Shown here one piece after another: positions 15,338 through 37,548 of a stretch of DNA of 64,000 nucleotides. The notes beneath the pieces are model-generated. The model did not search any database. It saw only the letters and a list, made by a program, of their open reading frames with translations, and had not been told where the DNA came from. How positions within the stretch are numbered: the first letter of the stretch is position 1; the number at the start of each line of letters is the position of its first letter. The translations under genes and the position numbers were made by a program. The stretch covers positions 3,264,501 through 3,328,500 of the forward strand of contig NZ_CP016809.1 in NCBI RefSeq assembly GCF_002741055.1. Reading direction: 5' to 3'. The stretch comes from Paenibacillus ihbetae (lineage in GTDB: Bacteria > Bacillota > Bacilli > Paenibacillales > Paenibacillaceae).

Positions 15338-15817
15338 ATGAATATACAGATTGTATGCGTAGGCAAGCTGAAGGAGAAATATCTGGTTCAGGGCATTGCG
15401 GAATACAGCAAGCGCCTGGCGCCTTATGTGCGTCTGTCGGTGCACGAAGTGCCTGACGAGAAAGCGCCGGAGAACATGAGCGAGGCGGAGATGCGTCAAG
15501 TGCAGGAGAAGGAGGGCGCGGGCATTCTCGGCCACATCAAGCCGGACGCCCACGTGATCGCGCTCGCGATCGGCGGACAGCTGTGGTCCAGCGAGGATCT
15601 GGCCGCCCATATCGACAAGCTGGGCACCTACGGTACCAGCACCGTCGCCTTCGTGATCGGCGGCTCGAACGGTCTCTCCGAGGCCGTGCTGAAGCGTGCC
15701 CAAACGAAGCTCAGCTTCGGGCGCATGACCTTGCCTCACCAGCTGATGCGGCTGGTGTTGGTGGAGCAGATTTACCGAGCGGTGAAGATTAATCGGGGGG
15801 AACCGTACCATAAATAA
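15338..15817 (+). CDS. rlmH: 23S rRNA (pseudouridine-1915-N3) methyltransferase RlmH
   Basis: SPOUT methyltransferase that modifies helix 69 of 23S rRNA using S-adenosylmethionine. Full-length at 159 aa: [16 protein letters not shown] start, the knot motif [11 protein letters not shown] and [14 protein letters not shown], and the conserved tail [14 protein letters not shown]. Start ATG 15338 follows AAGGAGCG. The last codons are the insertion site of SCC elements in Staphylococcus (there called orfX). Here the same bases recur in degenerate form at several downstream positions. Confidence 0.97.
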
Positions 15818-15832
15818 CGGCAAGTTATTAAA
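15800..15832 (+). repeat. rlmH 3' end: candidate attachment site, native copy
   Basis: GAACCGTACCATAAATAA (codes EPYHK-stop) followed by CGGCAAGTTATTAAA. It corresponds in position and coding to the SCC attB of staphylococci. Related copies lie at 23403, 26289, 28125 and 37517, all in the same orientation. Confidence 0.6.
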
Positions 15833-15927
15833 TATGCCCCCCTTTAAGTAAGCAGGTTTAATAAATAAACAGGCTACTTGCAGAGGAGCATACCAGTTAT
15901 CGTGGATGCCGAATTTTTTGGTGTCCT

Positions 15928-16800
15928 TTATAAGGGTTTTACCACATCATCTGAATCAGTGGAGTAAGCCAGCTCTTTCTGTGCTTCCAGAGCGGCCAGT
16001 CTGTCCAGCAGGGCTGCCCGGATTTGCTCATAGGCATCGCTGCCCAACGCCATACGTATCGGCCCATCTCCCTGGTCGACACGGTGGATAATCTGCTGCG
16101 CCATTTTATCCGGATCGCCGACAACCATTTGATTGAACATGCTCATATCTATACCAGGCAGTTCTCCCTTCATCAGGCTAACGAATCGGCCTGCCTCCGT
16201 ATCCCGGTATTCGTCCATCCGCTCGCCGAATACGGCGTTGCTTGTAATGAAATTCGTTCGGATTCCGCCGGGCTCCACCATAGTGGTCTTAATATTGAAC
16301 GGAGCCACTTCCTTAGCTAGCGCTTCAAAGGCTCCTTCGACCGCCCATTTCGAAGAGCAATACAGTCCCATACCCGGAATAGAATAATGACCCGCCATAC
16401 TCGAAATCTGTACCATGTGACCGCCGCCCTGCTTACGGAAGAAGGGCAGGAAAGCACGCGCTACACGCAGAGAGCCAAGCACATTGGTCATAAACTGATG
16501 TTCAATTTGCTTATCGCTTGCTTCTTCCACTGCGCCATACAAGCCATAGGCTGCATTATTGACAAACACATCGATCGTGCCCAGTTCTAAAAATGCACGC
16601 TCCACCACTTCAGCAATTTGTTGAGAGTTTGTCAGATCTAAATTAGCCTGCCAAAGCCCAGAGCCATACTGTGCCTGCAGATCATCCAGCACCCCCGGCT
16701 TGCGTACCGTTGCGGCTACACGGTCCCCTCTATCCAGCAACCGGCGAGTTATACATGAACCCAAGCCTCCTGATGCTCCTGTAATAAACCAAGTTTGCAT
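15928..16800 (-). CDS. Short-chain dehydrogenase/reductase
   Basis: NAD(P)-dependent oxidoreductase of 290 aa with Rossmann motif TGASGGLG (about residues 7-14), NNAAYG, and catalytic SSM...YCSSK (YxxxK). The C-terminal region is extended relative to classical 250-aa SDRs. Start MQTWFITGASGG at 16800 follows GGAGGG by 8 nt; longer frames upstream lack a site. It lies next to and on the same strand as an HTH/MmyB-type regulator, a common pair in which the regulator controls the SDR. Substrate unknown. Confidence 0.88.
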   Translation of the reverse strand: MQTWFITGASGGLGSCITRRLLDRGDRVAATVRKPGVLDDLQAQYGSGLWQANLDLTNSQQIAEVVERAFLELGTIDVFVNNAAYGLYGAVEEASDKQIEHQFMTNVLGSLRVARAFLPFFRKQGGGHMVQISSMAGHYSIPGMGLYCSSKWAVEGAFEALAKEVAPFNIKTTMVEPGGIRTNFITSNAVFGERMDEYRDTEAGRFVSLMKGELPGIDMSMFNQMVVGDPDKMAQQIIHRVDQGDGPIRMALGSDAYEQIRAALLDRLAALEAQKELAYSTDSDDVVKPL

Positions 16801-16896
16801 GCTAAACACCCTCCAATCGTTGTCATCCACCGAATTATACAAACAACTAGAGGGAGCTAGCCACAGCACGTCTATTCTATTAATGGGAGTAACAGT

Positions 16897-17751
16897 CTAC
16901 GGTAGCTGCCTGTCCTGCTCAAGTAAACGCAATAATCTCTCTTCCGTACCTGAACCGGGCACCGGAACAAAGAAACACCAGTGCAGTGCCGGGTCATTAT
17001 CGATTACAGCCGCGGAATGGAGCTCAAACTCCATCTCCTGTGCGTTAGGAACACGGAATAAAGCGGTGGCTACACGTTTTTGTTTGATTTCATATAGCTC
17101 CCAGAAATGCACGAATTCCGGGCTTTCCCGCCTCAAGCGTTCGAACCGTTCCATATATAACGGGTTGTTCTTGTATAGATCGAAGCCTGCCCGCAGAACA
17201 GCTACAGCGTAACGGGCAAAGCCTTCCCAATTCACCAGTCTGTTGCGGTAATCCGGCTTTAAAAACATAATGTCCATCATATTCCGTTCGTTGTCCGGCA
17301 GACTGCCGAAATCGGCTACGATCAGTTCTGCCGCTCGATTCCAGGCGATAATATCCGTACCTTCGTCTGTGATAAAAGAAGGATAATGCAGTTGATTTAC
17401 GATTTTCTGCAGAACTCCCGTATCCGGCCCACCGTTATTTGGCACTGTGACGACGCTCGTCACATCTACATTGGCCAGATCGAATAGATGCTTCTGCTCG
17501 TCTTCGTCAAGCTGAAGCGCTTTGCTGATACTTAGCAGCACTTCCGGCGAAGGATTAACCTCCTTGCCTTGCTCCAGCCAGGCATAGTAAGTCACGCTTA
17601 TATTGGCAAGATAAGAGACTTCTTCTCTTCGAAGTCCCGGAGTGCGTCTTCGTCCGGGCAGCGGCTGGATCCCTGCCTCTGAAGGCTGTAACCGTTCTCT
17701 GCGCGATTTAAGGAAGTCACCCAATGCGGACGGAGAATGATTCTTTTTCAA
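16897..17751 (-). CDS. XRE-type regulator with MmyB-like ligand domain
   Basis: DNA-binding regulator of about 284 aa. The N-terminal HTH (LRREEVSYLANISVTYYAWL, then EQGKEVNPSPEVL; about residues 45-85) is joined to a C-terminal MmyB-like domain (WNRAAELIVADF, NWEGFARYAVAVLRAGFDLY) as in many actinobacterial and bacilli regulators. GAGGTG lies 6 nt before a TTG at 17751, preferred over GTG 17760, which overlaps the site. The SDR downstream on the same strand is the likely target. Confidence 0.87.
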   Translation of the reverse strand: MKKNHSPSALGDFLKSRRERLQPSEAGIQPLPGRRRTPGLRREEVSYLANISVTYYAWLEQGKEVNPSPEVLLSISKALQLDEDEQKHLFDLANVDVTSVVTVPNNGGPDTGVLQKIVNQLHYPSFITDEGTDIIAWNRAAELIVADFGSLPDNERNMMDIMFLKPDYRNRLVNWEGFARYAVAVLRAGFDLYKNNPLYMERFERLRRESPEFVHFWELYEIKQKRVATALFRVPNAQEMEFELHSAAVIDNDPALHWCFFVPVPGSGTEERLLRLLEQDRQLP

Positions 17752-18004
17752 ATGGGTCACCTCATTTACTTATCTATTTACTCATAGGGAAGATGCAAAT
17801 TGCTAGTACCACATGGACCAAAAGAACGTTATATATGATTATTATAATCTCTGTTGAATGCCGTTTCTACAAAAGAGAAACACAACGAGCACAGAGGCTG
17901 TTAATCCCGCTAATAGTATAAACATGATGTGGTTGACTTCCCCCCACCGACAGTACAATGAAGATAATTTACGTCAGAGACGCTTAAATTAGGAGGTTGG
18001 CTTC

Positions 18005-18802
18005 TTGAACAAATATATATATCGAAATAAGCTGGCAGTAGTCACTGGTGCTTCATCTGGAATCGGGAAAGCGTATGCCAAAGAACTGGCGGCACGAGGA
18101 AGTCATGTCGTTCTGGCAGCGCGCTCCAAGGACAAGCTGGATGCAATGGCAAGGGAAATCAACCGCCAGTACGGCGTACAGGCTTATGCGCTCGCTTGCG
18201 ATTTGTCCAAAGCGAATGCCCCGCGTCAGCTGGCCGAACAAATATCCCAACTGGGCTTGTCGGTCGATATTCTCATCAACAACGCAGGCGTTGGCACTTA
18301 TGGCCGTTTCGAGGAAATAGACCCGGAGCGCGAGCAGGAGGAGATTCTGTTGAATACGGCTGCGTTAGTCGATCTTACGCATCGGCTGCTGCCCGATATG
18401 CTGAGGAGAAAGGATGGAGTCATCGTTAACGTAGCTTCGATGGCTGCGTTCATGCCTTGTGCATATTCTGCAGTTTATGGGGGTACCAAGGCATTTGTAT
18501 TGTCCTTCTCTGAGGCGCTATGGGCGGAGACGCGCGGGCGTGGTATGCGCGTGCTCGCACTGTGCCCGGGTGCAACAGAGACGGGATTTTTCGATGCGGT
18601 CGGCAGCGAGGAGATGGGAGCAGGTCAGAAGCTCTCGACCCCGGAAAAGGTTGTACAGGCCGGATTCCGCGGAATTGACCAGGGGCGCAGCTATATCATC
18701 GATGGCCGTAGCAATTACTTTATGGCTCTAATGATCCGACTTTTCAGCAGGCGCAGGGTGGCTTTAATCATGGAACGTATGTCAAAACCAAAAAGGCACT
18801 GA
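18005..18802 (+). CDS. Short-chain dehydrogenase (DltE-like)
   Basis: 265-aa SDR with TGASSGIG (about residues 15-22), NNAGVG, catalytic SMAAF...YGGTK and PGATET. The basic C-terminus (RLFSRRRVALIMERMSKPKRH) suggests membrane association, as in DltE/YqjQ-type SDRs. It starts at TTG 18005 with AGGAGG 9 nt upstream. Possible promoter elements TTGACT (17933) and TACAAT (17954) are only 15 bp apart. A terminator follows at 18885. Confidence 0.88.
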   Translation: MNKYIYRNKLAVVTGASSGIGKAYAKELAARGSHVVLAARSKDKLDAMAREINRQYGVQAYALACDLSKANAPRQLAEQISQLGLSVDILINNAGVGTYGRFEEIDPEREQEEILLNTAALVDLTHRLLPDMLRRKDGVIVNVASMAAFMPCAYSAVYGGTKAFVLSFSEALWAETRGRGMRVLALCPGATETGFFDAVGSEEMGAGQKLSTPEKVVQAGFRGIDQGRSYIIDGRSNYFMALMIRLFSRRRVALIMERMSKPKRH

Positions 18803-18884
18803 TAGCGGGATCCGGTTCTTGACTTAGAGTCTCGATGCACTTGAAGATCACCAACAGTAAATCATATAGATATCATTTAACCAT

Positions 18885-18926
18885 AAAACTCTTCATGGAG
18901 ACTGGTCTTTCCAAGAAGAGTTTTTC
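18885..18926 (+). terminator. Terminator after the SDR gene
   Basis: AAAACTCTTC pairs with GAAGAGTTTT; the loop can form a second TGGA/TCCA stem, and TTTTTC follows. Confidence 0.8.
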
Positions 18927-19302
18927 GCCGTTAGGCCTGTTAAGCTGTGAGGCCAAAGGGCGTTCGCTTATGAAACAATGCATTTAGTTCGCTAATTCCG
19001 CTTTCCCCCATTCGAATAGATCTCCCTGCTCTTCCCGTGATGCAATGCATATGTTTTTCAACCGCCCTCCGTCTGTTCATCGGTGACCTACTCGATCAGC
19101 ACCCCTCTAAGAGATTGTACTGAATAATTTGCCGTCTTCGTACATTACAAGTGGAAAACAAGGCTTTCCCAGTGTTGTATACCGGTAAATATTATATTCT
19201 TTTTCATCATTTCAAGGTCGATGATGTTATTATTTTTGATGCTGCTGTCACAAATTGAGCTGCATTGGTGTTTTAAGAGTGTAGGCAGGAGGAGGTAAGT
19301 TT
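18927..19302. other. Gap before the ECF sigma gene
   Basis: No gene seen. G+C falls towards the right. I could not define an ECF-type promoter by eye. Confidence 0.4.
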
Positions 19303-19881
19303 TTGGATAGTCATTACAGAGAGTATAAATCAAACACAGAAGAAATTGAGATGCTGGTTGAAAGGACTAAGCTTGGTGATAAGGAAGCTTTCGCTTCAAT
19401 TATAAGAAACTTTGAAAAACCAATGTATATCTATTGTTACCATATACTCAAAAACAAGGAAGAAGCCGAGGATGCTCTACAAGAAATATTTATTAAAGTG
19501 TATGAACAGATACATAAGTATCGTCCAAATATGAGTTTCTCGGCATGGCTGTACAAAATTGCCTACAATTACAGTCTGAATCAAATCCGCAGCAAAAAAA
19601 GGTGGTTTCGTTTTATAGATCGTTATAAATATGATCAGCCTGAGACCTCGACTCAGCAAATAGACAGTCAAACGACACTGAAGGATTTTCTAAATTCACT
19701 GACGATCGAAGAGAGACATATATTAGTTCTCCGGGCGATTCATCGATATAACTTCAACGAGATTAGTGAAATCATGAATATGAAACCGGCAACCGTGCGC
19801 AAAAAGTATGAACGCCTTCGCAAAAAACTGCAGACGAAGGAAGTTAATGAAGGAGGAACAGTGAATGCGTCGATCACCTAA
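19303..19881 (+). CDS. ECF sigma factor
   Basis: 192-aa RNA polymerase sigma factor of the extracytoplasmic-function type. Region 2 (about residues 20-95: YCYHILKNKEEAEDALQEIF, then the melting segment SFSAWLYKIAYNYSLNQIRS) and region 4 (about 125-180: LTIEERHILVLRAIHRYNFN, then EISEIMNMKPATVRKKYERL) are complete. It starts at TTG 19303 with AGGAGG 8 nt upstream. It overlaps the next gene by 17 bp, as is usual for sigma/anti-sigma pairs. The codon choice is AT-rich compared with the neighbouring housekeeping genes. Confidence 0.92.
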   Translation: MDSHYREYKSNTEEIEMLVERTKLGDKEAFASIIRNFEKPMYIYCYHILKNKEEAEDALQEIFIKVYEQIHKYRPNMSFSAWLYKIAYNYSLNQIRSKKRWFRFIDRYKYDQPETSTQQIDSQTTLKDFLNSLTIEERHILVLRAIHRYNFNEISEIMNMKPATVRKKYERLRKKLQTKEVNEGGTVNASIT

Positions 19882-20926
19882 TCCATCTAAAATCGCAAGT
19901 ATTCACCAAGTGGAGCAAATGATTCGGGATACGGAGACGCCAGAGTACAGCATGAGTCAACGGATTGTCGAAAAACTTGAATCCAAAAGCATGCCACCAC
20001 AAAAACCGATCTTCACAAGAAGAGTGGGAGTCATCGCAGCGGCGTTGGTTGCTTTTTGTGTGTCTCTAACTCCTGTCATGGCTCAAGCCATAGAGCGGCT
20101 ATCTTTGTTTGAATATATTAATCCGTTTGCCAAAGAAATGAAAAGTAGTCCAAATGAGAAGGTGGATACCATTTATTCACGAGATTTGGATGGGAATAAG
20201 AAATTTCATACGGGGATGATTCCCTTTGAGGACATTGAGGACCAGGAGTTTAAAAGCCAGCTGCAAAAGGTTTGGGATGAGATTTTCCCTCAAGGAGAAG
20301 GAATTAATGATGTGATTATGTACGAATATAAACCGAACACATTTCACATAGAGGCGCGAAACGAAAATAATTCCGTCGAATTTGACCAAGGTAAATGGTA
20401 TTATGCGCAGCAAACGATTGAAGAGGAGCAGGTTCCAGATGCAACAAAGGATGCAGCGGACCAAGCTTTTCATAAAGTTGGGGATTTTAAAGAAAGTGAA
20501 CGGTCAGTAAGTCAAATGATCTTAAGACCCGATCAAAATCCGGTGTATAAGTTCGTGTATCATACACACAAGGGTTCTATCCTCATTGATGTACAAAAAA
20601 ATACGAATCAGATCACAAGAGTTGTTGCTTTTCCGCTGTCGGATCAACTTAATCAATTGGATGATAAAAATAAATATCATGACTTAGTTGAGAAAACAAA
20701 AGCAATTGAGCTGGACAAGATTCATGAGGAAGCAGTGAAGCAAGCTAAGGCATGGATGAATTTGGATTTGGCTGATTATAACGTAGCCAAACTTGAATCA
20801 CGGTTTGATACATTAACGTTCACAAAAGAGGGTTCTCCAGACGTGACTGCGTTGTTTACCTCTAAAGGAACGATCTATTCTATTAAAATTGAGCTAAAGC
20901 AATTATCTGAAAAAGGTACGGACTAA
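19865..20926 (+). CDS. Putative anti-sigma factor with exported sensor-like domain
   Basis: 353 aa. A cytoplasmic N-terminus of about 50 aa, one membrane helix (about 52-72, GVIAAALVAFCVSLTPVMAQ), and an exported part of ~280 aa. No HxxxCxxC zinc anti-sigma motif is visible. The overlap with the sigma gene and the topology make it the likely sigma partner. The exported part matches the two following proteins: a W-E-x-x-F-P segment (VWDEIFPQGE against SWEALFPGEE), YKFVYHTHKGS against YQYKYKSKTMN, and AVKQAKAWMNLDL against AVKDAKTMLNLDL plus FTKEGSPDVTA. AAGGAGG lies 8 nt upstream. Confidence 0.75.
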   Translation: MRRSPNPSKIASIHQVEQMIRDTETPEYSMSQRIVEKLESKSMPPQKPIFTRRVGVIAAALVAFCVSLTPVMAQAIERLSLFEYINPFAKEMKSSPNEKVDTIYSRDLDGNKKFHTGMIPFEDIEDQEFKSQLQKVWDEIFPQGEGINDVIMYEYKPNTFHIEARNENNSVEFDQGKWYYAQQTIEEEQVPDATKDAADQAFHKVGDFKESERSVSQMILRPDQNPVYKFVYHTHKGSILIDVQKNTNQITRVVAFPLSDQLNQLDDKNKYHDLVEKTKAIELDKIHEEAVKQAKAWMNLDLADYNVAKLESRFDTLTFTKEGSPDVTALFTSKGTIYSIKIELKQLSEKGTD

Positions 20927-21120
20927 TCAGAAGGTGCAGGGTTTAAGCTGAATTAAATGGCAAAAGCTGTCCTGCCTGGCAGGTTGAAGGTGCTGCTCTG
21001 CCCGTCTAAGGCAGAGAGAGGGGGTGATGACTACTGGTCTTCTATAGATTTATTTCATCGTGACTGAAGCATTCCATTAAAAAGCTGTGGGTAATAAAAT
21101 TATAAAGGAGTTTATTCGTA

Positions 21121-22193
21121 TGAACAAAAAAATAATTTTTCCTATCATCGGAGCAGCCTTGTTATCGGGAAGTCTGCTTGGATATGATACACCGATTCAG
21201 GATAATTCTCTTAACAACGAGAATGTGAACATTAAGCAAGATGCTAAATCTGAGCAGACGCTTATGCAAAAGGCCCAGGGTAAGCTTAAAGAATTGACAG
21301 GAAATACGTATACGTTGATTCAAGGAACTGCTGCAAAAGAATCTATCCATTTAAAAAGAGAGAACTTCAAGGACGATATCATCGCCTATAAAGCTAACGG
21401 AAAGCTCGAAATGATCAGTATTAAAATCAATTATGAAGATTTAAACGGTGGGAAATATCAAACCAAACTGAAGGAATCGTGGGAAGCTTTGTTCCCAGGG
21501 GAAGAACCGAAGTATGTGAATATCTCAGAGTCAATCTACTATGTGGGCACCATCTCATCGAATGCTATACAAAATAAGCAGATTTATATGCAACAGAATG
21601 GCGAGGCTTATGGCGTAAATTATGCTCCTGACGATGCCCCGGCAAGCGTGCAGAAGGAGGCTGATCTGGTTCTGTCCAAGCTTACCGATGGAAAGGTCAA
21701 GCAGGGTGCTAAGTTGGATCGTATGTATGTCCTTGATGGCAAACCCAATGTGTATCAATATAAGTATAAATCAAAAACGATGAACGTGACCTTTGCCATT
21801 GAAGAACAAACCCTGGAACTGCTCCAAGCAGATGTAAATCATACCGATGGTAAAGGGGTAGACGGTTATGAAGAATTCCAGAAAAGAGAAAAAGAAAAAA
21901 GTGAAAAGATTAAGAAGTTGACGTTAGACACTTTGATGAAGAACGCAGTGAAAGACGCAAAAACGATGCTTAACCTGGATTTGAAAGGGTATAAGGCAGC
22001 AAGAGGGGCGAATGCATGGGATGAGGATTATATGACGTTCACCAAAGAAGGGGCTCCTTCAGTTACTGCTAGATTTAATAAAGACGGATCGTTTAGCAGC
22101 TTTACCATTGATAAGTATAATCAGACAATCGATTTTTACGGAATGACCATCGCTGGTCCCCCAAATGAAGAACCCAAATTGTTAATTGACTGA
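21121..22193 (+). CDS. Exported protein, paralogue of the anti-sigma sensor domain; lipobox lost
   Basis: 357 aa. The signal peptide MNKKIIFPIIGAALLSGSLL is followed by GY where the next gene has GC, so the lipobox cysteine is replaced by Y22 (TAT). The mature part is near-identical in layout to the product of the gene at 22273: ELTGNTYTLIQGTA, YEDLNGGKYQTK, VNYAPDDAPASV, AVKDAKTMLNLDLKGY. Start ATG 21121 has AAAGGAG upstream; a longer frame begins at 21087 without a site. With the cysteine gone it would be secreted or membrane-anchored rather than acylated. Confidence 0.8.
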
Positions 22194-22272
22194 TATGTAT
22201 GGAAAAGCAGCTTGGAGATGCACTTAAATTTCAGTATAACCATGAGGTAGCCAAAGAAAGGAATTCATCGAT

Positions 22273-23346
22273 ATGAACAAAAAGAAAATTTTCTCTATAC
22301 TCGGGGTAGCCTTATTATCAGGAAGTTTGCTGGGATGCCAAACACCCGTTGAGGCAGATTCGCCTAACAAAGTAAATATCAATGCTTCACAGAACGTTAA
22401 GGCGGATCAGAAGCTTATGCAGCAGGCTCAGGATAAACTGAAAGAGCTAACAGGAAATACCTATAAGTTAATTCAGGGAACAGCCATGAAAGATTTAGTG
22501 AGTTTTAAAAGAGAGAATTTCAAATATGATGTTATTACTTATAAAAAGAATGGAAAGCTTGAAAGCATCAATATTAACGTCAACTATGAAGATTTAAATG
22601 GCGGAAAATATCAAACTGAGCTGGGGAAAACGTGGGAAGCTTTGTTCCCAGGGGAAGCACCAAAGTATGTGAGTATCTCAGAGTCAAACTACAGTGTGGG
22701 TACGATCTCATCGAATGCCAAGCAAAATAAACAAGTTTATATGACAGAGAAGGAGCAGGCTCATGGTGTGAATTATGCTCCTGATGATGCCCCGGCAAGC
22801 GTGGAGAAGAAGGCTGCTCAGGTATTATCCAAGCTCACCAATGGAAAGGTTAAGCAGGGGGCTAAGTTGGATCGTGTGTTTGTCCGTGATGGCAAACCGA
22901 ATGTGTATCAATATAAGTATAAATCCAAAACGATGAATGCGAGCTTTGCCATTGAAGAAAAAACGCTGGAACTGCTTCAAGCAGGCGTATATCATAGTAA
23001 TGGTAAAAGCATAGATAATTACAAAGAATTCCAAAATAATGAAAAAGAAAAAGATGCAAAGATCAAGAAGCTGACATTGGATACATTAATGAAGAATGCA
23101 GTGAAAGATGCAAAAACGATGCTAAATCTGGATTTGAAAGGATATAAGGGAGCAAGAGGAACAAATGCATGGGACAAGGATCAAATGACGTTCACCAAAA
23201 AAGGGGCTCCCACAGTCATTGCCACAGTGGATGCAGACGGATCGTTTAACGAATTTATAGTAGAGAAGAATGGCCAGCATCTCAGTTTCGGCGGAAACAC
23301 GATCGTAGGGCCTGCAAATGAGGAACCAAAAGTATTAATCAACTAA
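22273..23346 (+). CDS. Lipoprotein, paralogue of the anti-sigma sensor domain
   Basis: 357-aa lipoprotein with lipobox LLGC (C22). It is a tandem duplicate of the preceding gene and shares its exported domain with the putative anti-sigma factor at 19865. Start ATG 22273 follows AAAGGAATT. Function unknown; its location with an ECF sigma pair suggests it is either part of the sensing device or a main target of the sigma factor. G+C is low and lysine codons are AAA-rich, unlike flanking SDR genes. Confidence 0.82.
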   Translation: MNKKKIFSILGVALLSGSLLGCQTPVEADSPNKVNINASQNVKADQKLMQQAQDKLKELTGNTYKLIQGTAMKDLVSFKRENFKYDVITYKKNGKLESININVNYEDLNGGKYQTELGKTWEALFPGEAPKYVSISESNYSVGTISSNAKQNKQVYMTEKEQAHGVNYAPDDAPASVEKKAAQVLSKLTNGKVKQGAKLDRVFVRDGKPNVYQYKYKSKTMNASFAIEEKTLELLQAGVYHSNGKSIDNYKEFQNNEKEKDAKIKKLTLDTLMKNAVKDAKTMLNLDLKGYKGARGTNAWDKDQMTFTKKGAPTVIATVDADGSFNEFIVEKNGQHLSFGGNTIVGPANEEPKVLIN

Positions 23347-23402
23347 TTCTAAATGTGGAAATCTTGATATTTTTGAAATCGGCACAAAAACTTGAAGCAG
23401 GC

Positions 23403-23433
23403 GAGCGGATGTCATAAGTAGGGAAAGTTTTTT
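23403..23433 (+). repeat. Degenerate rlmH-end-like copy
   Basis: Reads GAGCGGATGTCATAAGTAGG then GAAAGTTTTTT; compared with the rlmH end it keeps GA.C.G, CATAA.TA, GG.AAGTT.TT in order. It lies in the intergenic gap between the lipoprotein gene and the next module. Confidence 0.45.
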
Positions 23434-28100: not shown

Positions 28101-28124
28101 ACTTGCCGGTACAGACAGCGCGAA

Positions 28125-29929: not shown

Positions 29930-31091
29930 GCGGCATCACTCCTTTCAGCGGGATTTCGCATCGGACTTCGGTTACTGCTGGAGTTCCCTTCCCGGACGAC
30001 AGGTGCAAGCTGCCTCCCAACCGCTCAACCCTGTGCTTCATCGTGGTCAAGCCGAAGCCGTAATTGAGCTTGTCGATCGGCTTGCCGTTATTTCGAACGG
30101 ACAATTGCAGATGGCTCTCGGAAAATTTAAGCTCCAGATCAAGCTGAGATGCCTTTCCATGCTTTATTGCATTCGTAAAGGACTCCTGGATGACCCGAAG
30201 GATTGTTTGCCGTACTTCAAAACGTATGGACCGCTCTGTCCCCGGCAGACTCAAAGTCAGGGCCGTACCCGTGTGCTCCCGGAAACGGGCCGCAAGGGAT
30301 TCAACCTGTCGGATCAGACTGGATTCCTCTTCTCCCCCCATCTCGTGTACGATGTTTCTCATATCGTCCAGATTTTTCTCAGCCAATGCCCTTAAGCGTA
30401 TTAACCGATCTTTGGCCTCGGCAGGCTTGCTATCCATAAGGGCAATAGAAGCATCAAGACTCAGGATGAGTGAGATAAAGGAATGACCCAGCGTATCATG
30501 AAGCTCCTTGGACATGCGGTTGCGTTCTTCAAGCAAAGTCATTTTCTCGATCTCGGCCGAATAGTGAGTTAAGAGCTTATTTTGATGCTCTACTTCGGCT
30601 ACCAGTTTATTCTTCTGATCATACGCATTGGCTACGAGGCTTGCCCACATGCCGATGAAGCAGAATAGCAGATTGTCTGCTCCGATACTTAGGGGTTGCT
30701 CCCAAGATAATCTGAGGTGAGATTGAAAGGAAAATGGAATGAAAACAACGACGGGGATGATCCAAAGGGTTTGCTTAGTCAATAAGTACCCCATTGTAAG
30801 ACTCGGCAGCAAATAGTCCGCTTTTGAAGTCAGATCCGGATCAATCACAGAATGCACATAATAAGAACCGCCTAGTAACAGCTCTAGTATACAAAACCAG
30901 ACTTTGTTCATCCGGCGCCCAGGAAACCAGAACAGCAAAGGGACGCCAAGGGCTGCGCCCAGCCAGATCACATTTAATAACGTTCGGATCGAAAGCTCAC
31001 TTACCGCCAGAGCCTGGGACAACAGCAAAATATAATGGTACAAACGAAGAGCGAATATACCCCAATCCATGAACGATAATATTTTTTTCAT
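29916..31091 (-). CDS. DesK/LiaS-type sensor histidine kinase
   Basis: 391-aa membrane kinase. About five membrane helices in residues 10-155, then a coiled coil (QNKLLTHYSAEIEKMTLLEE) and the HisKA_3 box with phospho-acceptor H198 (KELHDTLGHS), and a HATPase domain (NAIKHGKA, NYGFGLTTMKHR). Partner of the response regulator directly downstream. The signal is unknown; no transporter is adjacent, but the CPBP gene lies just beyond. Confidence 0.92.
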   Translation of the reverse strand: MKKILSFMDWGIFALRLYHYILLLSQALAVSELSIRTLLNVIWLGAALGVPLLFWFPGRRMNKVWFCILELLLGGSYYVHSVIDPDLTSKADYLLPSLTMGYLLTKQTLWIIPVVVFIPFSFQSHLRLSWEQPLSIGADNLLFCFIGMWASLVANAYDQKNKLVAEVEHQNKLLTHYSAEIEKMTLLEERNRMSKELHDTLGHSFISLILSLDASIALMDSKPAEAKDRLIRLRALAEKNLDDMRNIVHEMGGEEESSLIRQVESLAARFREHTGTALTLSLPGTERSIRFEVRQTILRVIQESFTNAIKHGKASQLDLELKFSESHLQLSVRNNGKPIDKLNYGFGLTTMKHRVERLGGSLHLSSGKGTPAVTEVRCEIPLKGVMPLGEN

Positions 31092-31457
31092 AACATCATT
31101 TTACAGGAAATCTACAAACTTGGAACCTCGCATACCAGCCAGTAAAATAAAACTCGGCATAGACAGTAGCAGTTCAATACGATAACCTACGGTCGTCCCA
31201 ACCGCCATAAATGTCTTTAATGGTTTATTGTGTGTCAAAGGCGGATCGCCACTTGCGAGTATGCCTTCGATTTAATCATGGCATCGCAAATAAGGTGAAG
31301 GAATCGAACTAAGCCCCAAAAATTCTAAAACGCTACTGACATGACGTTGTCAATAGCGTTTTTTTATTATTGGACATGTAAATGTAATAAGTAAAAAGCA
31401 TGTTTTACAACGGCTGTGGGGCACAGCCAAACCCATTATTAGGAAGGATGATATGTT
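31092..31457. other. Gap between the kinase gene and the VOC gene
   Basis: Contains a terminator-like hairpin (31326-31366) but no gene on the plus strand that it could serve. Confidence 0.5.
31326..31366 (+). terminator. Orphan terminator
   Basis: AAAACGCTA and TAGCGTTTT arms with an inner TGACA/TGTCA stem, followed by a T run. No gene ends before it on this strand within the window module, so it may be left from a deleted gene or work as an attenuator before the VOC gene. Confidence 0.7.
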
Positions 31458-31862
31458 GTGAATTTCGCTTCTGTACGCATCATTACTGACGACGTGGATC
31501 GTCTCGTCGAGTTCTATGAGAAAGTCATGGGGGTTTCGGCGGAGCGACCCGCGCCCGTATTTGCCGAACTCGTCTTGCCATCATGCACCCTTGCCATCGG
31601 CCACTCCCAGACGGCGCAGCTATTCGGTGCCGGTTCCGTAGCGGGGGCCAATAATCGCACTGTCATTATTGAGTTCCGCGTCGATGATGTCGAAGCCGAA
31701 TATGTGCGCTTGAAGCCATTTGTCGATCATTGGGTAAAGGAACCGACCACGATGCCGTGGGGGAACCGTTCTATGCTGTTCCGCGATCCCGATGGCAATC
31801 TGCTGAACTTCTTCGAGCCGGTGACCGAGGATGCGATTAGGCGGTTCAAAGGTAGACATTGA
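31458..31862 (+). CDS. VOC-family (glyoxalase-fold) protein
   Basis: 134-aa member of the vicinal-oxygen-chelate fold: two beta-alpha-beta modules, N-terminal NFASVRIITDDVDRLVEFYE and C-terminal NRSMLFRDPDGNLLNFFEP. A metal-binding Glu (FFEP) is visible, but the usual N-terminal His is replaced in RIITDDV. GTG start at 31458 follows AAGGATG. Function cannot be assigned (resistance or isomerase are typical). Confidence 0.85.
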   Translation: MNFASVRIITDDVDRLVEFYEKVMGVSAERPAPVFAELVLPSCTLAIGHSQTAQLFGAGSVAGANNRTVIIEFRVDDVEAEYVRLKPFVDHWVKEPTTMPWGNRSMLFRDPDGNLLNFFEPVTEDAIRRFKGRH

Positions 31863-31883
31863 CGAACGCTTTTGGGTTGTATC

Positions 31884-32993
31884 TTATTGTGGAGGCTGAA
31901 TGGAGCCGATCAGCTCATCCAATTCGGACTGTAATTGCAGACGGAGTTTCTCTACGATTGAAAAATCAGTGGCCGCAACATAGTAGGCTTTAATCTGAGA
32001 ATCGATGGCTTCGGCTTCCGCCAGATGGGAGGTGGCCTCTTTCATCTTTGCCGAATAGCGTACTTTGATAGCCGCTATTTCGTTAGCATAGGCTTCATCG
32101 GTTCCAGGAGCTATCGTCCGTGTATACATATCCAGGATCTCATCCCCGTCCCGATCCGGAAAATATTCATGCGGAGCGGTACTGTCGAAGATCGCTGTTC
32201 GAAGCTCGGGGAATATCAGCATATCCAGACTGTTCGGATCAAAGCCGCAATGAAACACTTGAACGTCGATTCCTTTCTGTTCGGCAGCGGAGGCAAGCTT
32301 TTTCAGCAGCGTCGATTTGCCGGATCCCGCCCTTCCTTTGATGAAAATCCGTCTTTCCAGCTGAGCGGTCAGGCTTTGAATAAAATCGAACGCCCCCCTC
32401 GGGGTCGCAGCTCCGAAAAATAAGTGACGCGGAGCGATTGGCGTATCGCTCTCATGACCGGCGTATAATTCTTGAATGAATTCCAGTGCAATCTGATCGG
32501 CCTTCGCGAAATCCATATTTTCGATGTAATATTTTTCCCACTCGTCATGAATCCGTAGTGCCGTTGCGAATGTTTCATACACAGCTGAATAGGCATTCTC
32601 AAGCTTGCCACTAAGATCTTCTATCGTGACCAAGTCTTCCGGTGAAATCAGGCTGTTATCGAACGCTTCCCCGAAATCGATATAGACGATGTCGCCGGCC
32701 CCGCGATCCGATATCCCCTTACAGACTCGCCCGTCGACCATACCAACCTTCAATTCCGTACAAATAATGCCATCCAGTTCGTCGGGACGGAGAGGGGAGT
32801 GGAAGCATTGCACATGCAAGCCTTGATCCAGCAGGCGATCCGCCAAGCTTTGCATGACCGTCGATTTCCCCGTACCTTGGGGCCCCGTAAGGACAAAGAT
32901 CTTGTTCAATCCATCAAATGCGGATTCATACAAGTAATGAGCCCCGCGCGCAGTGTTGCCGTGGGCAAAATAGTGAGATGATGTGAGTACCAA
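31884..32993 (-). CDS. Double P-loop ATPase (PRK06851-like)
   Basis: 369-aa protein with two related NTPase halves: Walker A GPQGTGKST (about residue 38) and GRAGSGKST (about residue 228). Each half is followed by the same pattern (VQCFHSPLRPDELDGIICTE against VQVFHCGFDPNSLDMLIFPE). This internal duplication is typical of the PRK06851 family of uncharacterised ATPases in Firmicutes. Start is the TTG at 32993, 8 nt after AAAGGAG; the longer frame to 33029 overlaps this site. Confidence 0.8.
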   Translation of the reverse strand: MVLTSSHYFAHGNTARGAHYLYESAFDGLNKIFVLTGPQGTGKSTVMQSLADRLLDQGLHVQCFHSPLRPDELDGIICTELKVGMVDGRVCKGISDRGAGDIVYIDFGEAFDNSLISPEDLVTIEDLSGKLENAYSAVYETFATALRIHDEWEKYYIENMDFAKADQIALEFIQELYAGHESDTPIAPRHLFFGAATPRGAFDFIQSLTAQLERRIFIKGRAGSGKSTLLKKLASAAEQKGIDVQVFHCGFDPNSLDMLIFPELRTAIFDSTAPHEYFPDRDGDEILDMYTRTIAPGTDEAYANEIAAIKVRYSAKMKEATSHLAEAEAIDSQIKAYYVAATDFSIVEKLRLQLQSELDELIGSIQPPQ

Positions 32994-33155
32994 CCTACAC
33001 ACTCCTTTGTGCCTATTCCGATTCGCCAAGCTTACAGAATAAGCATGATTGGGATAAGTGCCTATTTATTTGTATATTCCGCATTGTAACAAGTGGTGTT
33101 CGTCCGCTCGTGATTTTCGCTATTTGATACGGGACAGCGGAAGGTAAAAGCTCAT

Positions 33156-33202
33156 GCCTGCGCTAAATGGGCAGATTTCACTTGCCCTGCGCAGGCTTTT
33201 CT
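33156..33202 (+). terminator. Hairpin terminator/attenuator in the pnuC leader
   Basis: GCCTGCGC pairs with GCGCAGGC, with an inner TGGGCA/TGCCC stem, followed by TTTTCTG. It stands about 100 bp before pnuC with no plus-strand gene upstream, so it may be an attenuator of the pnuC operon. Confidence 0.65.
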
Positions 33203-33213
33203 GTTATTTTTGA

Positions 33214-33232
33214 TAGTAACAAAATGTTATTA
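33214..33232. promoter_or_regulatory. Inverted repeat upstream of pnuC, candidate operator
   Basis: TAGTAACA-AAA-TGTTATTA has one mismatch between arms. It may be bound by the NrtR-like NUDIX regulator encoded in the same cluster; this is inference. Confidence 0.4.
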
Positions 33233-33303
33233 ATAAAATGATACTAAGTATGAGTGAGTGTTTTCGTACTATAAACCAGCGGAGAAAGCGGAGGGGATGT
33301 AAT

Positions 33304-33981
33304 GTGAGGATGGTTGCGCGCGGCTGGAACCTGTTCGAAATCGCGTGGTTGGCGCTGTTTACCTCGATTGCCGCGTTGTTTACGGTGATTTCAAAGGACT
33401 CTTTATTCGGATTTACCGTTTTTATTACCGGGGTGCTTTGCGTGGTGCTTGCGGCGAAGGGCAGTCTGATGAGCTATGTCTTCGGCATGTACAATACCGT
33501 CGGTTACGCTTATCTGGCTTATATTAACGGGTTGTTTGGAGAGGTTATGCTGAATCTGCTGTTCTTCGTTCCGATGAACGTCATTGGCTTCTACATGTGG
33601 AAAAATAACCGACAAGACGGCAAGCTGATCATGCGCCAAATGGAGCTTAGAGGTCTGCTTCTCGTTGGCGCAGCCTGTCTGTTAGGCTGTTTGCTGCTGG
33701 GATACGGGCTTTCGTTCATCCCGGGACAGAACTCGCCCTACATCGATGCGACTACGACAGTGCTGTCCGTTGTGGCCACCTTCTTAATGGTCCGCAGATT
33801 CAAGGAACAATGGCTGGTCTATATTGTGTTGAATTTGTTTACGGTGCTGCTGTGGGCGATTCGACTGCTGGAGGGCAGCGGCGAAGGCATGCTGATGATC
33901 GTCATGTGGAGCGCGTATTTGGTCAATGCCGTATACGGCTATTACAACTGGAACAAAGGGGCCAAGGAGGTGGCGGCATGA
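33304..33981 (+). CDS. pnuC: Nicotinamide riboside/mononucleotide transporter PnuC
   Basis: 225-aa polytopic membrane protein, about seven helices, for uptake of the NAD precursor nicotinamide riboside. Family marks: FGMYNTVGYAYLAYINGLFG, ...FVPMNVIGFYMWKNN and the C-terminal YGYYNWNK. GTG 33304 is chosen because GGAGGGG is 8 nt upstream; the longer frame to 33238 has none. Overlaps nadR by 4 nt. Coupling to nadR fits import followed by phosphorylation and adenylylation. Confidence 0.92.
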   Translation: MRMVARGWNLFEIAWLALFTSIAALFTVISKDSLFGFTVFITGVLCVVLAAKGSLMSYVFGMYNTVGYAYLAYINGLFGEVMLNLLFFVPMNVIGFYMWKNNRQDGKLIMRQMELRGLLLVGAACLLGCLLLGYGLSFIPGQNSPYIDATTTVLSVVATFLMVRRFKEQWLVYIVLNLFTVLLWAIRLLEGSGEGMLMIVMWSAYLVNAVYGYYNWNKGAKEVAA

Positions 33982-35004
33982 AAACGCTCGGATTAACGCT
34001 GGGGAAATTTGCCCCGCTGCATAAAGGGCATCAGTTCATGATCGAAACGGCGCTGCAGGAGGTCGATGAATTGATCGTGGTCATTTACGAGACGACCGTC
34101 ATGCCGATCCCGCTTCATATCCGGGCGAATTGGATAAGGCGGCTATACCCGGCAGTACGGGTCGTCGAAGCTTGGGACGGACCGGACGGGTATTCGGATG
34201 ACCGAGAGCATGAGATCCGGGAAGAGCAGTATATCCTCCGTTTACTGAACGGCGAGCAAGTCACGCATTTTTATTCGAGCGAGTTTTACGGCAGGCATAT
34301 GAGTCTCGCTTTGGGCTCGGTTGACCGGCGGGTTGATGAAGCCCGCGAGCAGGTTCCGATCTCTGCAACGATGATCCGTTCCGACCCGTATAAGTACAGG
34401 GAGTTCATAAGTGATATCGTGTATCGGGACTTAATCACGAAGGTGGTATTTGTCGGGGCGATGTCAACGGGGAAGTCGACGATCACCGAAGCGCTGGTAT
34501 CACACGACCTACGCCAGTGAATACGGGCGCGATTATTGGACCGAGCATCAGGTGGACCGCAGAATCAGCCTGGAGGCGTTCGATGAAATCGCAGTGGGCC
34601 ATATCGAGCGGGAAGAGCAGGCTTTGATAGCGGCGAACCGATTCCTGTTCGTCGATACCAATGCGATTACGACATATATGTTCGCCATGGATTACCATGG
34701 CCGGGCGCCGGAGCGATTAACGCGGATTGCGCTGGAGAACGCGCAGCGCTACGACCTGTTCTTCTTGTGCGATGACGATATTCCTTATGACGATACATGG
34801 GATCGAAGCGGGGATCAGAAGCGGCATGTTTTTCATAAACAGATCATCGCGGATTTGAAGGAACGGCGCATCCCCTACATTACGCTGCGGGGGGGCCTGG
34901 AAGAGCGCATGCGCAAGGTAGACGAGGTGCTGGCGAAGTTCGAGCCCTATCGGAACTATTTCGGGGAGCTAAAACGGTTAGAATTCGATGCAGGCAGGGA
35001 GTAA
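33978..35004 (+). pseudogene. nadR: NadR (NMN adenylyltransferase/ribosylnicotinamide kinase), frameshifted
   Basis: First frame 33978-34520: adenylyltransferase domain with GKFAPLHKGH (HxGH) and ISATMIRSDP, then the kinase Walker A GAMSTGKST. After EAL (34496) the frame runs into a stop (VSHDLRQ-stop). One base later (tat at 34498) the correct kinase sequence resumes in another frame (YHTTYASEYGRDYW ... NRFLFVDTNAITTYMFAMDY) to 35004. A net loss of about 5 or 8 bases, or gain of one, at 34496-34498 would explain it. The first domain could still be made and active; the kinase is cut after its P-loop. Confidence 0.85.
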
Positions 35005-35057
35005 AATAAACCCATAACCACAGCTCATTTAGAATCAAAAACAAGGAGGCGCCCCCA

Positions 35058-35942
35058 TTGGATTTGTTGGATCGGGATGGACTTACGGAACGCGAATTTT
35101 TGGAGAAGTACCGGGCAAAGGATTACGAGCGGCCTTCGGTGGCAGCCGATATGGTGATCTTCACGGTTACGGATGAGGCGGCTGACAGCTATCGGAAGCT
35201 ACCCGAAAAAGAGCTCCGCATCCTGCTCATCCGCCGGGGAGGTCACCCTTTCCTGGGTAAATGGGCGCTGCCTGGCGGCTTTGTCCAGCCGAGCGAGACG
35301 ACTGAACAGGCCGCGGCAAGGGAACTGCGCGAGGAGACCGGCGTGGACGACGTTTATTTGGAGCAGTTGTATACGTTCAGTGACATCGGGCGAGATCCCC
35401 GAACCTGGGTGATGAGCTGCAGCTACATGGCCCTGATCAACAGCGATAAGTTGGAGCTTCAGGCGGGAGACGATGCGGCCGACGCCGCTTGGTTCAAGGT
35501 CTCCTATCGGCTGCTGCGGGAGCAGAAAGAGATGATGGAGGACGGATACGTCAAGACGCTGGAGTATGAACTCAAGCTAAGCGGTGAAGAGGAGCTTTCG
35601 GCGGTCGTGGCGAGGACGTTGACCGTGAAGACCTCATCGACCAGCACGGAATATAAGATCGTATCGAATAACGGTTTGGCCTTCGACCACGCGAAGATTA
35701 TAGCATGCGCGATCGAGCGGCTGCGGGGAAAAGTGAACTATACCGATATTGCGCTGCACTTAATGCCGGAGCTTTTTACCTTGACGGAGCTGCAGCAGGT
35801 TTATGAGGTCATTTTGGATAAAGTGCTATTGAAGGCAGCCTTCCGGCGCAAGGTGGCCGATCTCGTGGCGGAGACCGATCATTACACCGAAAATGCGGGA
35901 CACAGGCCTTCCCGCTTGTATCGGAGAAAACTGGAGGATTAA
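35058..35942 (+). CDS. NUDIX hydrolase with NrtR-like winged helix
   Basis: 294 aa. NUDIX box GGFVQPSETTEQAAARELRE followed by ETG (about residues 74-96) gives a pyrophosphatase fold for ADP-ribose-like ligands; the C-terminal part (about 215-285: IACAIERLRGKVNYTDIALH, LMPELFTLTELQQVYEVIL) is the winged helix of NrtR regulators of NAD metabolism. TTG start at 35058 with AAGGAGG 8 nt upstream. Intact catalytic E residues leave open whether it is enzyme, regulator or both. It sits in an NAD-salvage cluster, consistent with either. Confidence 0.88.
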   Translation: MDLLDRDGLTEREFLEKYRAKDYERPSVAADMVIFTVTDEAADSYRKLPEKELRILLIRRGGHPFLGKWALPGGFVQPSETTEQAAARELREETGVDDVYLEQLYTFSDIGRDPRTWVMSCSYMALINSDKLELQAGDDAADAAWFKVSYRLLREQKEMMEDGYVKTLEYELKLSGEEELSAVVARTLTVKTSSTSTEYKIVSNNGLAFDHAKIIACAIERLRGKVNYTDIALHLMPELFTLTELQQVYEVILDKVLLKAAFRRKVADLVAETDHYTENAGHRPSRLYRRKLED

Positions 35943-35944
35943 CG

Positions 35945-36418
35945 ATGATTTACAACCTCGATGAGTTAAGAAAAGCTTATAACGAAGGGAAAACGTTCAA
36001 GTTTGTATTCTTTTGGGGCCATACGCCGCCTAAGGACGGGAGCATCGACAAAAGCTGCTTCAGCCAGTGGTGGATGTGCCCGTTCACGGTAGAGGGGACG
36101 GAATATTCCTGTGCCGAGCAGTTTATGATGGCTGAGAAGGCAAGGCTGTTCGGCGACCATGAAATGCTGGAGTCGATCCTTATAGCTAAGCATCCCAAGG
36201 AGATGAAGGCTTATGGGCGAGCGGTCCGTAACTTCGACAAGGATACTTGGGACAAGGAATGCTACGGCAACGTCAAAAGAGCCAGTGTGGCCAAGTTTTC
36301 GCAGAATCCGGAGCTTGGCGAATACCTCAAGTCGACGAAGAACCGCATCCTCGTCGAAGCCAGCACGCGGGACCGCATTTGGGGGATCGGCATAGGCCAG
36401 TCCAATCCGGATGCGTAG
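35945..36418 (+). CDS. NADAR-family protein, ended early by an in-frame TAG
   Basis: 157 aa to the TAG at 36416-36418. NADAR/YbiA proteins act on ADP-ribose or riboflavin-pathway N-glycosides; marks are FFWGHTPP, QWWMCPFTVEG, CAEQFMMAEKARLFGD and STKNRILVEASTRDRIWGIG. The same frame goes on for 25 codons after the TAG (NPVKWRGQNLLGFALTEARD...), which is the normal C-terminal helix of the family, to a TAG at 36494-36496. So this is a nonsense mutation at codon 158, or a read-through site. Follows the NUDIX gene by 2 nt. Confidence 0.88.
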   Translation: MIYNLDELRKAYNEGKTFKFVFFWGHTPPKDGSIDKSCFSQWWMCPFTVEGTEYSCAEQFMMAEKARLFGDHEMLESILIAKHPKEMKAYGRAVRNFDKDTWDKECYGNVKRASVAKFSQNPELGEYLKSTKNRILVEASTRDRIWGIGIGQSNPDA

Positions 36419-36563
36419 AACCCCGTGAAATGGCGGGGCCAGAACCTGCTGGGGTTCGCGCTGACCGAAGCGCGGGACGAGCTGCTGCAAAGCTAGTTTT
36501 TTGGCAGGATAACAGAATTAGGGATCATACTGCTTCGGCGTAATCGGAATGGAGGAGCCTAAA

Positions 36564-36842
36564 TTGATAACATACGAAATTCCTGAAATTTTTCTGAGTG
36601 ATGATTGCTATAGCAGTGGTAGCAGAATTGGCAGTTATCCCTATTTTATTCAGAATGAATATTTAGGCTTTGATGATGATTTCCTTCTGCTGCAGCTGGA
36701 TATCGATGATGAATGCGGTATTATGTTTGGCGATGCCGGGAACTGTGTTTTCTCAATTCCAAAGGATGCTTTGAGAAGCAGGGATTTTTCAAAAGTTGTG
36801 TATAAATTGGCAATGTTGCTAGTGAGTAAGGCATCATGGTAG
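36564..36842 (+). CDS. C-terminal part of a DUF1963 (YwqG-like) protein
   Basis: About 92 aa. It matches only the last third of DUF1963 proteins: SRIGSYPYFIQNEYLGFDDD, FLLLQLDIDDECGIMFGDAG, then the D-F-S-K-V-V-Y end. Family members are about 260 aa. The TTG at 36564 has GGAGGAG 6 nt upstream, so the fragment might be expressed; the ATG at 36549 overlaps that site. Either a 5'-truncated remnant or a short standalone form. Such proteins often occur as immunity-like orphans. Confidence 0.6.
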   Translation: MITYEIPEIFLSDDCYSSGSRIGSYPYFIQNEYLGFDDDFLLLQLDIDDECGIMFGDAGNCVFSIPKDALRSRDFSKVVYKLAMLLVSKASW

Positions 36843-36905
36843 AGCAGTGAAGGGGACGCTCTCCGTGAGATACATATTATTTCTGGAGATAAGGGAGCAC
36901 ATCGT

Positions 36906-37313
36906 ATGCTTAAACGGGTGTTGGGCAAAGAGGAAGATATCATTCGGGCGTTCGCAAAAGAGGTTGTTGACTCCATCGCAGATGGACGATATGAGGAAGT
37001 TGCCCAAAAAGTTGATGATATGCAGGATTGGAACGTTGAGCTATTAAAAGAGGTCATCGAGCGTTATAAGGAAGATAATGAGTTGGAACAGATCGACAGG
37101 TTTGATGTAGAATGTACCTTTAGGCCTGTTTATAAAGATGGCAGTGTTTATCAACAAGAATCCTTCTATCACTTTAACGATGGAAGCGGAATTGCTTATG
37201 AATATGCATTAACGACAGATGGCGAACCCAACGATCTGACTTTGAGTATGGAGTTTCACTTTGAAGGTGACTATCTGAAAGTCATTTTTGACAGTGGAAT
37301 TGCTGTGCTTTAA
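36906..37313 (+). CDS. Conserved protein of unknown function
   Basis: 135 aa: helical N-terminus (EEDIIRAFAKEVVDSIADGR) and a beta-rich C-terminus (VECTFRPVYKDGSVYQQESF, YHFNDGSGIAYEYAL). No domain recognised with confidence; the layout resembles small immunity-type proteins found as orphans. Start ATG 36906 follows AAGGGAG at a long spacing. AT-richer than the NAD cluster. Confidence 0.65.
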   Translation: MLKRVLGKEEDIIRAFAKEVVDSIADGRYEEVAQKVDDMQDWNVELLKEVIERYKEDNELEQIDRFDVECTFRPVYKDGSVYQQESFYHFNDGSGIAYEYALTTDGEPNDLTLSMEFHFEGDYLKVIFDSGIAVL

Positions 37314-37516
37314 AGAAGCCTGTGAAAGTGCTCAGAAGTACATCGTCGGCTTTGAGCTTGTTGAAGCTTGCAACAGGTTAATACCTCTGCAAGGTTAGAA
37401 ATTATGCAAAAAATCATGTCGTAAATCGTAGTATATTTCGATGTGAGGCGCTTCATCGCTTAAACGGGTTGCAGACTAGTTCTTTAGCATGTTTCGCCGA
37501 TAGACCCGTTAAGCTT

Positions 37517-37539
37517 GAACCGCATAGTAAAGGCAAGTT
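37517..37539 (+). repeat. rlmH-end-like copy downstream of the NAD cluster
   Basis: GAACCGCATAGTAAAGGC followed by AAGTT. Against the native site it lacks TAC and one base but keeps GAACCG, CATA, TAA and GGCAAGTT in order. Intergenic, directly before a terminator. Confidence 0.45.
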
Positions 37540-37548
37540 GACAATCTG

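What the first reader, a model, noticed from the sequence alone, without database searches (positions are those of the whole stretch)
15800..37540. Degenerate copies of the rlmH 3' end recur between modules: possible composite SCC-like islands in a Paenibacillus-type genome
The rlmH end (GAACCGTACCATAAATAA then CGGCAAGTTATTAA) is the counterpart of the SCC attB in staphylococci. Same-orientation copies lie at 28125 (16 of 18 bases in the core, both changes synonymous), 23403 (CATAAGTA, AAGTT kept), 26289 (TAAATAGCGGCAAGTT) and 37517 (GAACCG, CATA, GGCAAGTT). All are intergenic and divide the accessory genes into modules: SDR/XRE/SDR/ECF, SDR/MerR/splAB, dehydrogenase/Crp, and CPBP to NAD cluster. 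This looks like repeated insertion at one site. No recombinase gene remains. The gene order and copies are seen; the mechanism is inference.
Basis: partly seen in the sequence, partly recalled or inferred. Interest (0 to 1): 0.8.

Follow-up and report, generated by a model that had tools for sequence, protein, structure and literature searches.

The report
Decayed SCC-like cassette array at rlmH
Downstream of the rlmH gene this Paenibacillus carries a worn row of small imported gene cassettes, each ending in a copy of the same DNA landing site, and related bacteria carry fresher versions together with enzymes related to those that move the MRSA resistance cassette.

Summary
The window is an old composite array of SCC-like cassettes at rlmH. 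Its modules reappear as blocks, in other orders and company, in related Paenibacillus. In 55 rlmH-downstream regions the exact 18-base core occurs 143 times in rlmH's orientation and never in the other. Left and right ends fall into matching classes (67 of 92), and each class goes with its own clade of Ccr-like large serine recombinases; one element also has a Cch1-like helicase. Only 12 of 225 site-to-site modules hold such a recombinase. One pair of genomes shows an exact filled/empty site. The window's own genome has no PF07508 recombinase, so its array looks stranded. SCC-like and composite islands at rlmH are published for Bacillota, including one Paenibacillus. What looks new is the genus-wide cassette-array form, in which many recombinase-less units share ends with rare autonomous ones. 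Movement in trans is inferred, not shown.

The parts
15338..15817 (+). rlmH; its last 18 bases are the attachment core
   Evidence: 159 aa protein, 99% identical to P. lactis RlmH
15800..15829 (+). site 0: rlmH-end core plus left end of module A (CGGCAAGTTATT)
   Evidence: 26.4 bits with the core-plus-left-end model
15818..18947 (.). module A: SDR (15928-16869 -), MmyB-like XRE regulator (16897-17760 -), SDR (18005-18802 +); class I right end at 18922-18947, its core truncated
   Evidence: 93% identical block beside rlmH in G070, which has the full site at this edge
19150..23403 (+). module B: ECF sigma factor (19303-19881) and three proteins without Pfam match (19865-20926, 21087-22193, 22273-23346); left site lost
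   Evidence: block 19150-23367 in P. lactis (96%), where it follows an intact site, and in G065
23403..23432 (+). worn site between B and C1 (CATAAGTAGGGAAAGTTTTTT)
   Evidence: 7.2 bits, noise level alone; intact site at the same edge in P. lactis
   Evidence: block in P. lactis (92%) and most of it in G048 (80%); SDR by Pfam; broken gene, family not tested
24788..24813 (+). class II right end plus start of core (end of C1)
24811..26278 (+). module C2: splA-like regulator (within ORF 24694-25173) and spore photoproduct lyase splB (25082-26194)
   Evidence: Pfam SplA, SPL; block in P. lactis and, without C1, in P. solani
26254..26308 (+). site: class III right end, worn core, left end of D (CGGCAAGTTTTT)
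   Evidence: 17.5 bits; 42.1 against a shuffle maximum of -8.6 with the 56-base matrix
26290..28124 (.). module D: zinc-type dehydrogenase (26332-27459 -) and Crp-like regulator (27284-27982 +), with inverted-repeat ends CGGCAAGTTT / AAACTTGCCG
   Evidence: block 26330-28122 in P. dakarensis (83%), there with worn ends
28099..28154 (+). site: class II right end, well kept core (28125-28142), class I-like left end of E
   Evidence: 45.3 bits; 68.0 against a shuffle maximum of -5.1
28138..37516 (.). module E, itself fused from several older units: E1 28228-31141 (CPBP protease, response regulator, histidine kinase), E2 31311-31862 (glyoxalase), E3 31864-36490 (ATPase, NMN transporter, CTP_transf/AAA_28 pieces, NrtR-type NUDIX, NADAR), E4 to 37516 (DUF7668)
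   Evidence: separate blocks in G065, G032, G056, G078, P. lautus, P. lactis
37492..37540 (+). site: class I right end, worn core, left end of F (GGCAAGTT)
   Evidence: 30.6 bits
37529..38788 (.). module F: RibD_C-type reductase (37631-38167 -) and HxlR regulator (38327-38710 +)
   Evidence: Pfam; class II-like at both ends; only a partial relative found, in one named locus
38764..38795 (+). class II right end plus worn core; last clear site in the window
38809..40137 (+). block G (DUF4261 protein 38971-39846), next to the last site; follows an intact site in P. lactis

Best explanation
The region is a decayed composite array of SCC-like cassettes at rlmH. The 3' end of rlmH is the attachment site of Ccr-type large serine recombinases. 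A circular cassette recombines there and becomes flanked by the core (GAACCGTATCATAAGTAR type), with its own class-specific ends just inside as inverted repeats. Later cassettes enter at rlmH again, so units pile up in one orientation, newest nearest rlmH. A few units are autonomous (recombinase, one also with a Cch1-like helicase); most carry only cargo and probably move when a recombinase of the same end class is supplied in trans. In this genome no such recombinase is left, several sites are worn or lost, and neighbouring units have fused. Shown by comparison: repeated oriented sites, paired ends, block shuffling, linkage of end class and recombinase clade, one exact empty site. Inferred: that these enzymes do the joining, movement in trans, and how the DNA is transferred.
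For: Core 143 to 0 by orientation in 55 regions, reversed-pattern control 0 and 0; none upstream at 0-1 mismatches. Inverted-repeat ends at fixed distance before the core, 103 of 191 copies against 72 of 2200 random windows. End classes match in 67 of 92 modules, 34.8 expected, 0 of 20000 shuffles reach it. Recombinase clade follows end class; best family matches CcrB and CcrC, Cch1 helicase. Blocks shuffled between relatives. Filled and empty site. Core wear grows with distance from rlmH, Spearman 0.25, p 0.001, 171 copies.
Against: No recombinase in the window's genome, so nothing can be active here now. The recombinases score far below the curated Ccr cut-offs (427, 253 and 377 bits against 900). 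Only one exact empty site and one further split junction were found. 25 of 92 classed modules have unmatched ends. Wear by array rank alone is not significant, p 0.10. P. dakarensis has module D without clear sites. 5 of 55 regions have no core copy besides rlmH at 0-1 mismatches. No biochemical test exists here.
Confidence: 0.88

Rival explanations
1. The modules are ordinary accessory genes exchanged by homologous recombination and deletion in a variable region; the repeats are seams at which recombination happens, not recombinase sites.
For: The region is highly variable, E1-E3 are shared without a clear site between them here, and 25 of 92 modules have unmatched ends.
Against: Inverted-repeat ends in matching classes, linkage to recombinase clades and a unit missing exactly core to core are not expected. 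Homologous exchange probably adds to the shuffling.
Confidence: 0.07
2. Some or all copies come from another kind of integration at rlmH, such as a prophage or conjugative element with a longer rlmH-end identity segment.
For: Several genomes have longer rlmH 3' fragments downstream or elsewhere (G007, G023, G027, G050, G060, G097), and two copies (G070 5819, G023 13403) are preceded by rlmH-like sequence rather than a cassette end.
Against: Such copies are the minority: 2 of 190 right ends were classed as rlmH-like. The window's sites have class I, II or III ends.
Confidence: 0.04
3. The repeats are chance or a regulatory motif.
For: 23403 is at noise level alone, and 17143 shows that a fair match can sit in a gene.
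Against: 0.01 expected at 3 mismatches; six right ends above every shuffled hit; none upstream of rlmH at 0-1 mismatches in 800 kb.
Confidence: 0.01

Closest known systems
SCC elements, composite SCC and pseudo-SCC islands of staphylococci
   Same: Landing site at the rlmH 3' end, terminal inverted repeats holding the last rlmH codons, Ccr-type recombinases and (one element) a Cch1-like helicase in relatives, tandem composites, units without ccr.
   Different: Here most units are small and lack a recombinase, arrays reach many sites, several end classes each with its own recombinase clade coexist, cargo is mostly metabolic and regulatory in the window, and the window's genome has no recombinase.
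SCC-like islands with PolA-SSB primases in Bacillota, including composite P. pinistramenti (PMC10061031, passages read)
   Same: Large serine recombinases downstream of rlmH, repeats of the rlmH end, a Paenibacillus composite.
   Different: The passages seen describe autonomous islands; arrays of recombinase-less cassettes and end classes were not in them. The whole text was not read.
Enterococcus cassette chromosome (PMC6222049, passages read)
   Same: ccrAB-type recombinases, rlmH site, att repeats, transfer shown in the laboratory.
   Different: One element of 32 to 78 kb class size rather than arrays of small units.
Integron gene-cassette arrays (recalled, not tested)
   Same: Works alike in layout: small cargo units, one orientation of sites, likely insertion at one fixed end, enzyme carried apart from the cassettes.
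   Different: Sites are rlmH-derived cores with inverted-repeat ends, the candidate enzyme is a serine recombinase, and cassettes often hold their own regulator. A likeness of working, not membership.

Membership tests
SCC family, for the modules in the window | Insertion at the 3' end of rlmH with repeats of the core | tested here: met
SCC family, for the modules in the window | Terminal inverted repeats | tested here: met
   clear for module D; partial or worn for the others
SCC family, for the modules in the window | ccr recombinase in the element | tested here: not met
   no PF07508 match in the whole genome; so these are ccr-less units or remnants, not full SCC elements
SCC family, for the modules in the window | Helicase (Cch or related) operon | not tested
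   no helicase seen among the ORFs given to Pfam, but not every ORF was given
SCC family, for the autonomous elements in relatives | Ccr-type large serine recombinase beside rlmH | tested here: met
   3 recombinases scanned, best matches CcrB, CcrC, CcrB at 1.2e-127, 4.3e-75, 2e-112, below curated cut-offs
SCC family, for the autonomous elements in relatives | Helicase near the recombinase | tested here: met
   met in the one class II element scanned, G066: Cch1 2.7e-59, DUF927, HTH_56; the class III element scanned, G087, gave Prim-Pol and RadC instead
SCC family, for the autonomous elements in relatives | Excision and integration by the recombinase | not testable with these tools
   only sequence; one filled/empty pair seen
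Integron | IntI integrase and attC sites | not tested
   no search was made; likeness in layout only

The most novel reading that the evidence does not exclude
Paenibacillus, and probably much of its family, runs an integron-like gene-cassette system at rlmH: small cargo cassettes, often an enzyme with its own regulator, carry ends of a few classes; each class is served in trans by its own Ccr-type serine recombinase, carried on rare autonomous SCC-like elements; the cassettes are collected in a polar tandem array.
Probability: 0.55. Interest if true: 0.8.

Novelty: new variant of a known kind. Interest (0 to 1): 0.62.

Why it matters
It would show that the SCC way of moving genes is, in soil Bacillota, a general cassette-collecting system rather than a vehicle for single large islands. 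It offers a natural set of core and end sequences paired with their recombinases, and makes movement of recombinase-less units in trans by Ccr-type enzymes directly testable, which also bears on how ccr-less SCC remnants persist and move.

Tried and rejected
Rejected: the 17143 copy as a site. It lies in an MmyB-like regulator gene, scores 4.6 bits, and nearly the same bases recur in module A of G070. Not usable: cassette against rlmH identity as proof of transfer. The glyoxalase unit is 93% identical to G087 over 423 bases while the rlmH 3' part is 82% over 148, but rlmH is too conserved and the stretch too short. Not found: the right edge of the island; no clear site after 38795, and the DNA right of the window could not be fetched. 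The far clusters of core copies could not be read for the same reason. A PDB search with one recombinase gave only general serine recombinases. No structure prediction was run.
Full report
WHAT WAS CHECKED. The 18-base end of rlmH (15800-15817) searched with up to 3 mismatches gives three hits in the window, 0.01 expected from shuffles. Over 33 bases, 26279 and 17143 have 25 identities, 28125 has 24, and nothing else exceeds 20. Models built from site copies of other genomes find six right ends in the window, all on the + strand: 18922-18947, 24788-24813, 26254-26282, 28099-28141, 37492-37525 and 38764-38795, at 17.5 to 45.3 bits; the best hits in 20 shuffled windows are 8.0 to 10.0. The 23403 site is at noise level alone, but P. 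lactis has an intact site at the same module edge. The 17143 match is inside an MmyB-like regulator gene, scores 4.6 bits, and is rejected.

THE REPEATS ARE ELEMENT ENDS. In 54 relatives plus the window (55 regions, 2.44 Mb downstream of rlmH, the rlmH copy itself left out) the exact core occurs 143 times in the orientation of rlmH and 0 times in the other; the pattern read backwards gives 0 and 0. At up to one mismatch it is 191 against 1, controls 0 and 0, and 50 of 55 regions have a copy. At two mismatches noise appears: 224 against 13, controls 13 and 9. In 80 named rlmH loci there is no copy at 0-1 mismatches in 800 kb upstream (1 at two mismatches) and there are 93 in 776 kb downstream. 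Over 100 genus genomes the core, rlmH included, occurs 1 to 18 times per genome, with 6 control hits in all. The core is followed by a left end and preceded by a right end that are inverted repeats: class II GGGCAAGTTTTT / AAACTTGCCGTTACAGACAGCGCGGT; class III GGCGAAATTT / AATTTCGCTCTATAGATGTTACGGT; class I CGGCGAAAAATT / TTTTTCGCCGATAGACCCGTTAAGCT. An end-like motif precedes the core in 103 of 191 copies against 72 of 2200 random windows, 96 of the 103 at 16-18 bases. Of 190 site-to-site modules, 92 could be classed I to III at both ends, and 67 of these match; shuffling gives 34.8 on average and never 67 in 20000 (one of the 67 is the window's own first interval, which is composite).

THE ENZYMES. 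PF07508 recombinases occur in 82 of 100 genus genomes and not in the window's own genome. In 70 rlmH-downstream regions (15 of them added in part because one search listed a recombinase near rlmH), 18 hold a recombinase or fragment, and 12 of 225 closed modules hold one of at least 350 aa. Class III ends go with a tandem pair in 5 modules (G053, its second gene split, G068, G087, G011, G072). Class II ends go with a single recombinase in 4 (G066, G001, G011, G064). A further end type goes with a pair in the other orientation in 2 (G017, G057). The twelfth, in G049, has mixed ends and a broken class II type gene. The proteins group by end class: class II 57-95% identical to each other and at most 49% to the class III and other-type proteins; the larger class III partner 70-86%. 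For the three tested the best NCBIfam matches are CcrB, CcrC and CcrB (1.2e-127, 4.3e-75, 2e-112), all far under the curated cut-offs. The G066 element also has a Cch1-like helicase with DUF927 and the Cch helix-turn-helix domain; the G087 element has RadC and Prim-Pol proteins.

MOBILITY. Window blocks occur in relatives in other company: A beside rlmH in G070; B and C1-C2 in P. lactis with 5 kb of other DNA between; C2 without C1 in P. solani; D in P. dakarensis, there with worn ends; E1, E2, B, E3 in that order in G065; E3 about 170 bases after rlmH in P. lautus. Over 140 regions (the 70 plus 70 named loci; 10 duplicates dropped), 34 genome-site combinations have a module left end at rlmH in one genome and at an inner site in another; 6 junction matches, counted in both directions, are conserved and 2 are split. 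One split is exact: G056 has a 304-base core-to-core unit where G078 has a single core, with near-identical flanks. End-anchored core copies (171; none on reversed sequence) are more worn further from rlmH, Spearman 0.25, p 0.001; by rank alone p is 0.10. Copies of one genome are not independent. This fits entry at rlmH.

CARGO. Several of the 15 small cassettes printed also look, by eye and without a family search, like an enzyme with a regulator. Under slightly different rules one search counts 80 matched modules in 70 regions: class II 39, median 2.19 kb; class III 34, median 4.39 kb; class I 7, median 5.24 kb; 50 of 80 are 5 kb or less.

HOW IT PROBABLY WORKS. Shown: sites, paired ends, class-enzyme linkage, one exact empty site, block shuffling. 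Inferred: a Ccr-type recombinase joins circular cassettes to the rlmH end; recombinase-less units move in trans; here the enzyme is gone and the array decays.

WHAT IS KNOWN. SCC-like islands downstream of rlmH in Bacillota, with a composite in P. pinistramenti, are in PMC10061031 (passages read). An SCC-like element in Enterococcus is in PMC6222049 (passages read). Eight searches, of which I saw the listings, showed no title or abstract on arrays of small rlmH cassettes in Paenibacillus; some listings were capped, and most subscription papers are not held. A slightly wider core pattern is repeated in many other genera of the family and less across the class, where most genomes outside the family have 0 to 4.

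Noticed in passing
G018 C1:525296-626316, G019 C1:5333000-5373966, G017 C1:1598255-1637720, G016 C1:2546631-2549962, G007 C1:4776741-4787466: Same-orientation clusters of the core far from rlmH: a second landing site, or arrays moved by rearrangement. The DNA could not be fetched.
   Followed up: partly
G086 downstream coordinates 7265-8241 and 14682-15659; G083 10702-11677: Nearly the same 0.98 kb class II cassette twice in one array and once in another genome.
   Followed up: partly
G007 C1:40010-40087, G097 C2:2109744-2109821, G023 C25:112283-112543, G027 C1:256727-256807: Longer copies of the rlmH 3' end (about 26 codons or more) away from rlmH, perhaps made by another integration route.
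   Followed up: no
window 33810-35004: Cytidylyltransferase-like and AAA_28 pieces lie in overlapping ORFs in different frames; this looks like one broken NadR-like gene.
   Followed up: no
   Followed up: partly
window 21087-23346: Two neighbouring proteins without Pfam match are tandem copies, about 78% identical in DNA to each other's P. lactis counterpart.
   Followed up: no
window 53177-59797: A 2206 aa ORF, not identified here, whose DNA recurs downstream of rlmH in G032 and G065.
   Followed up: no
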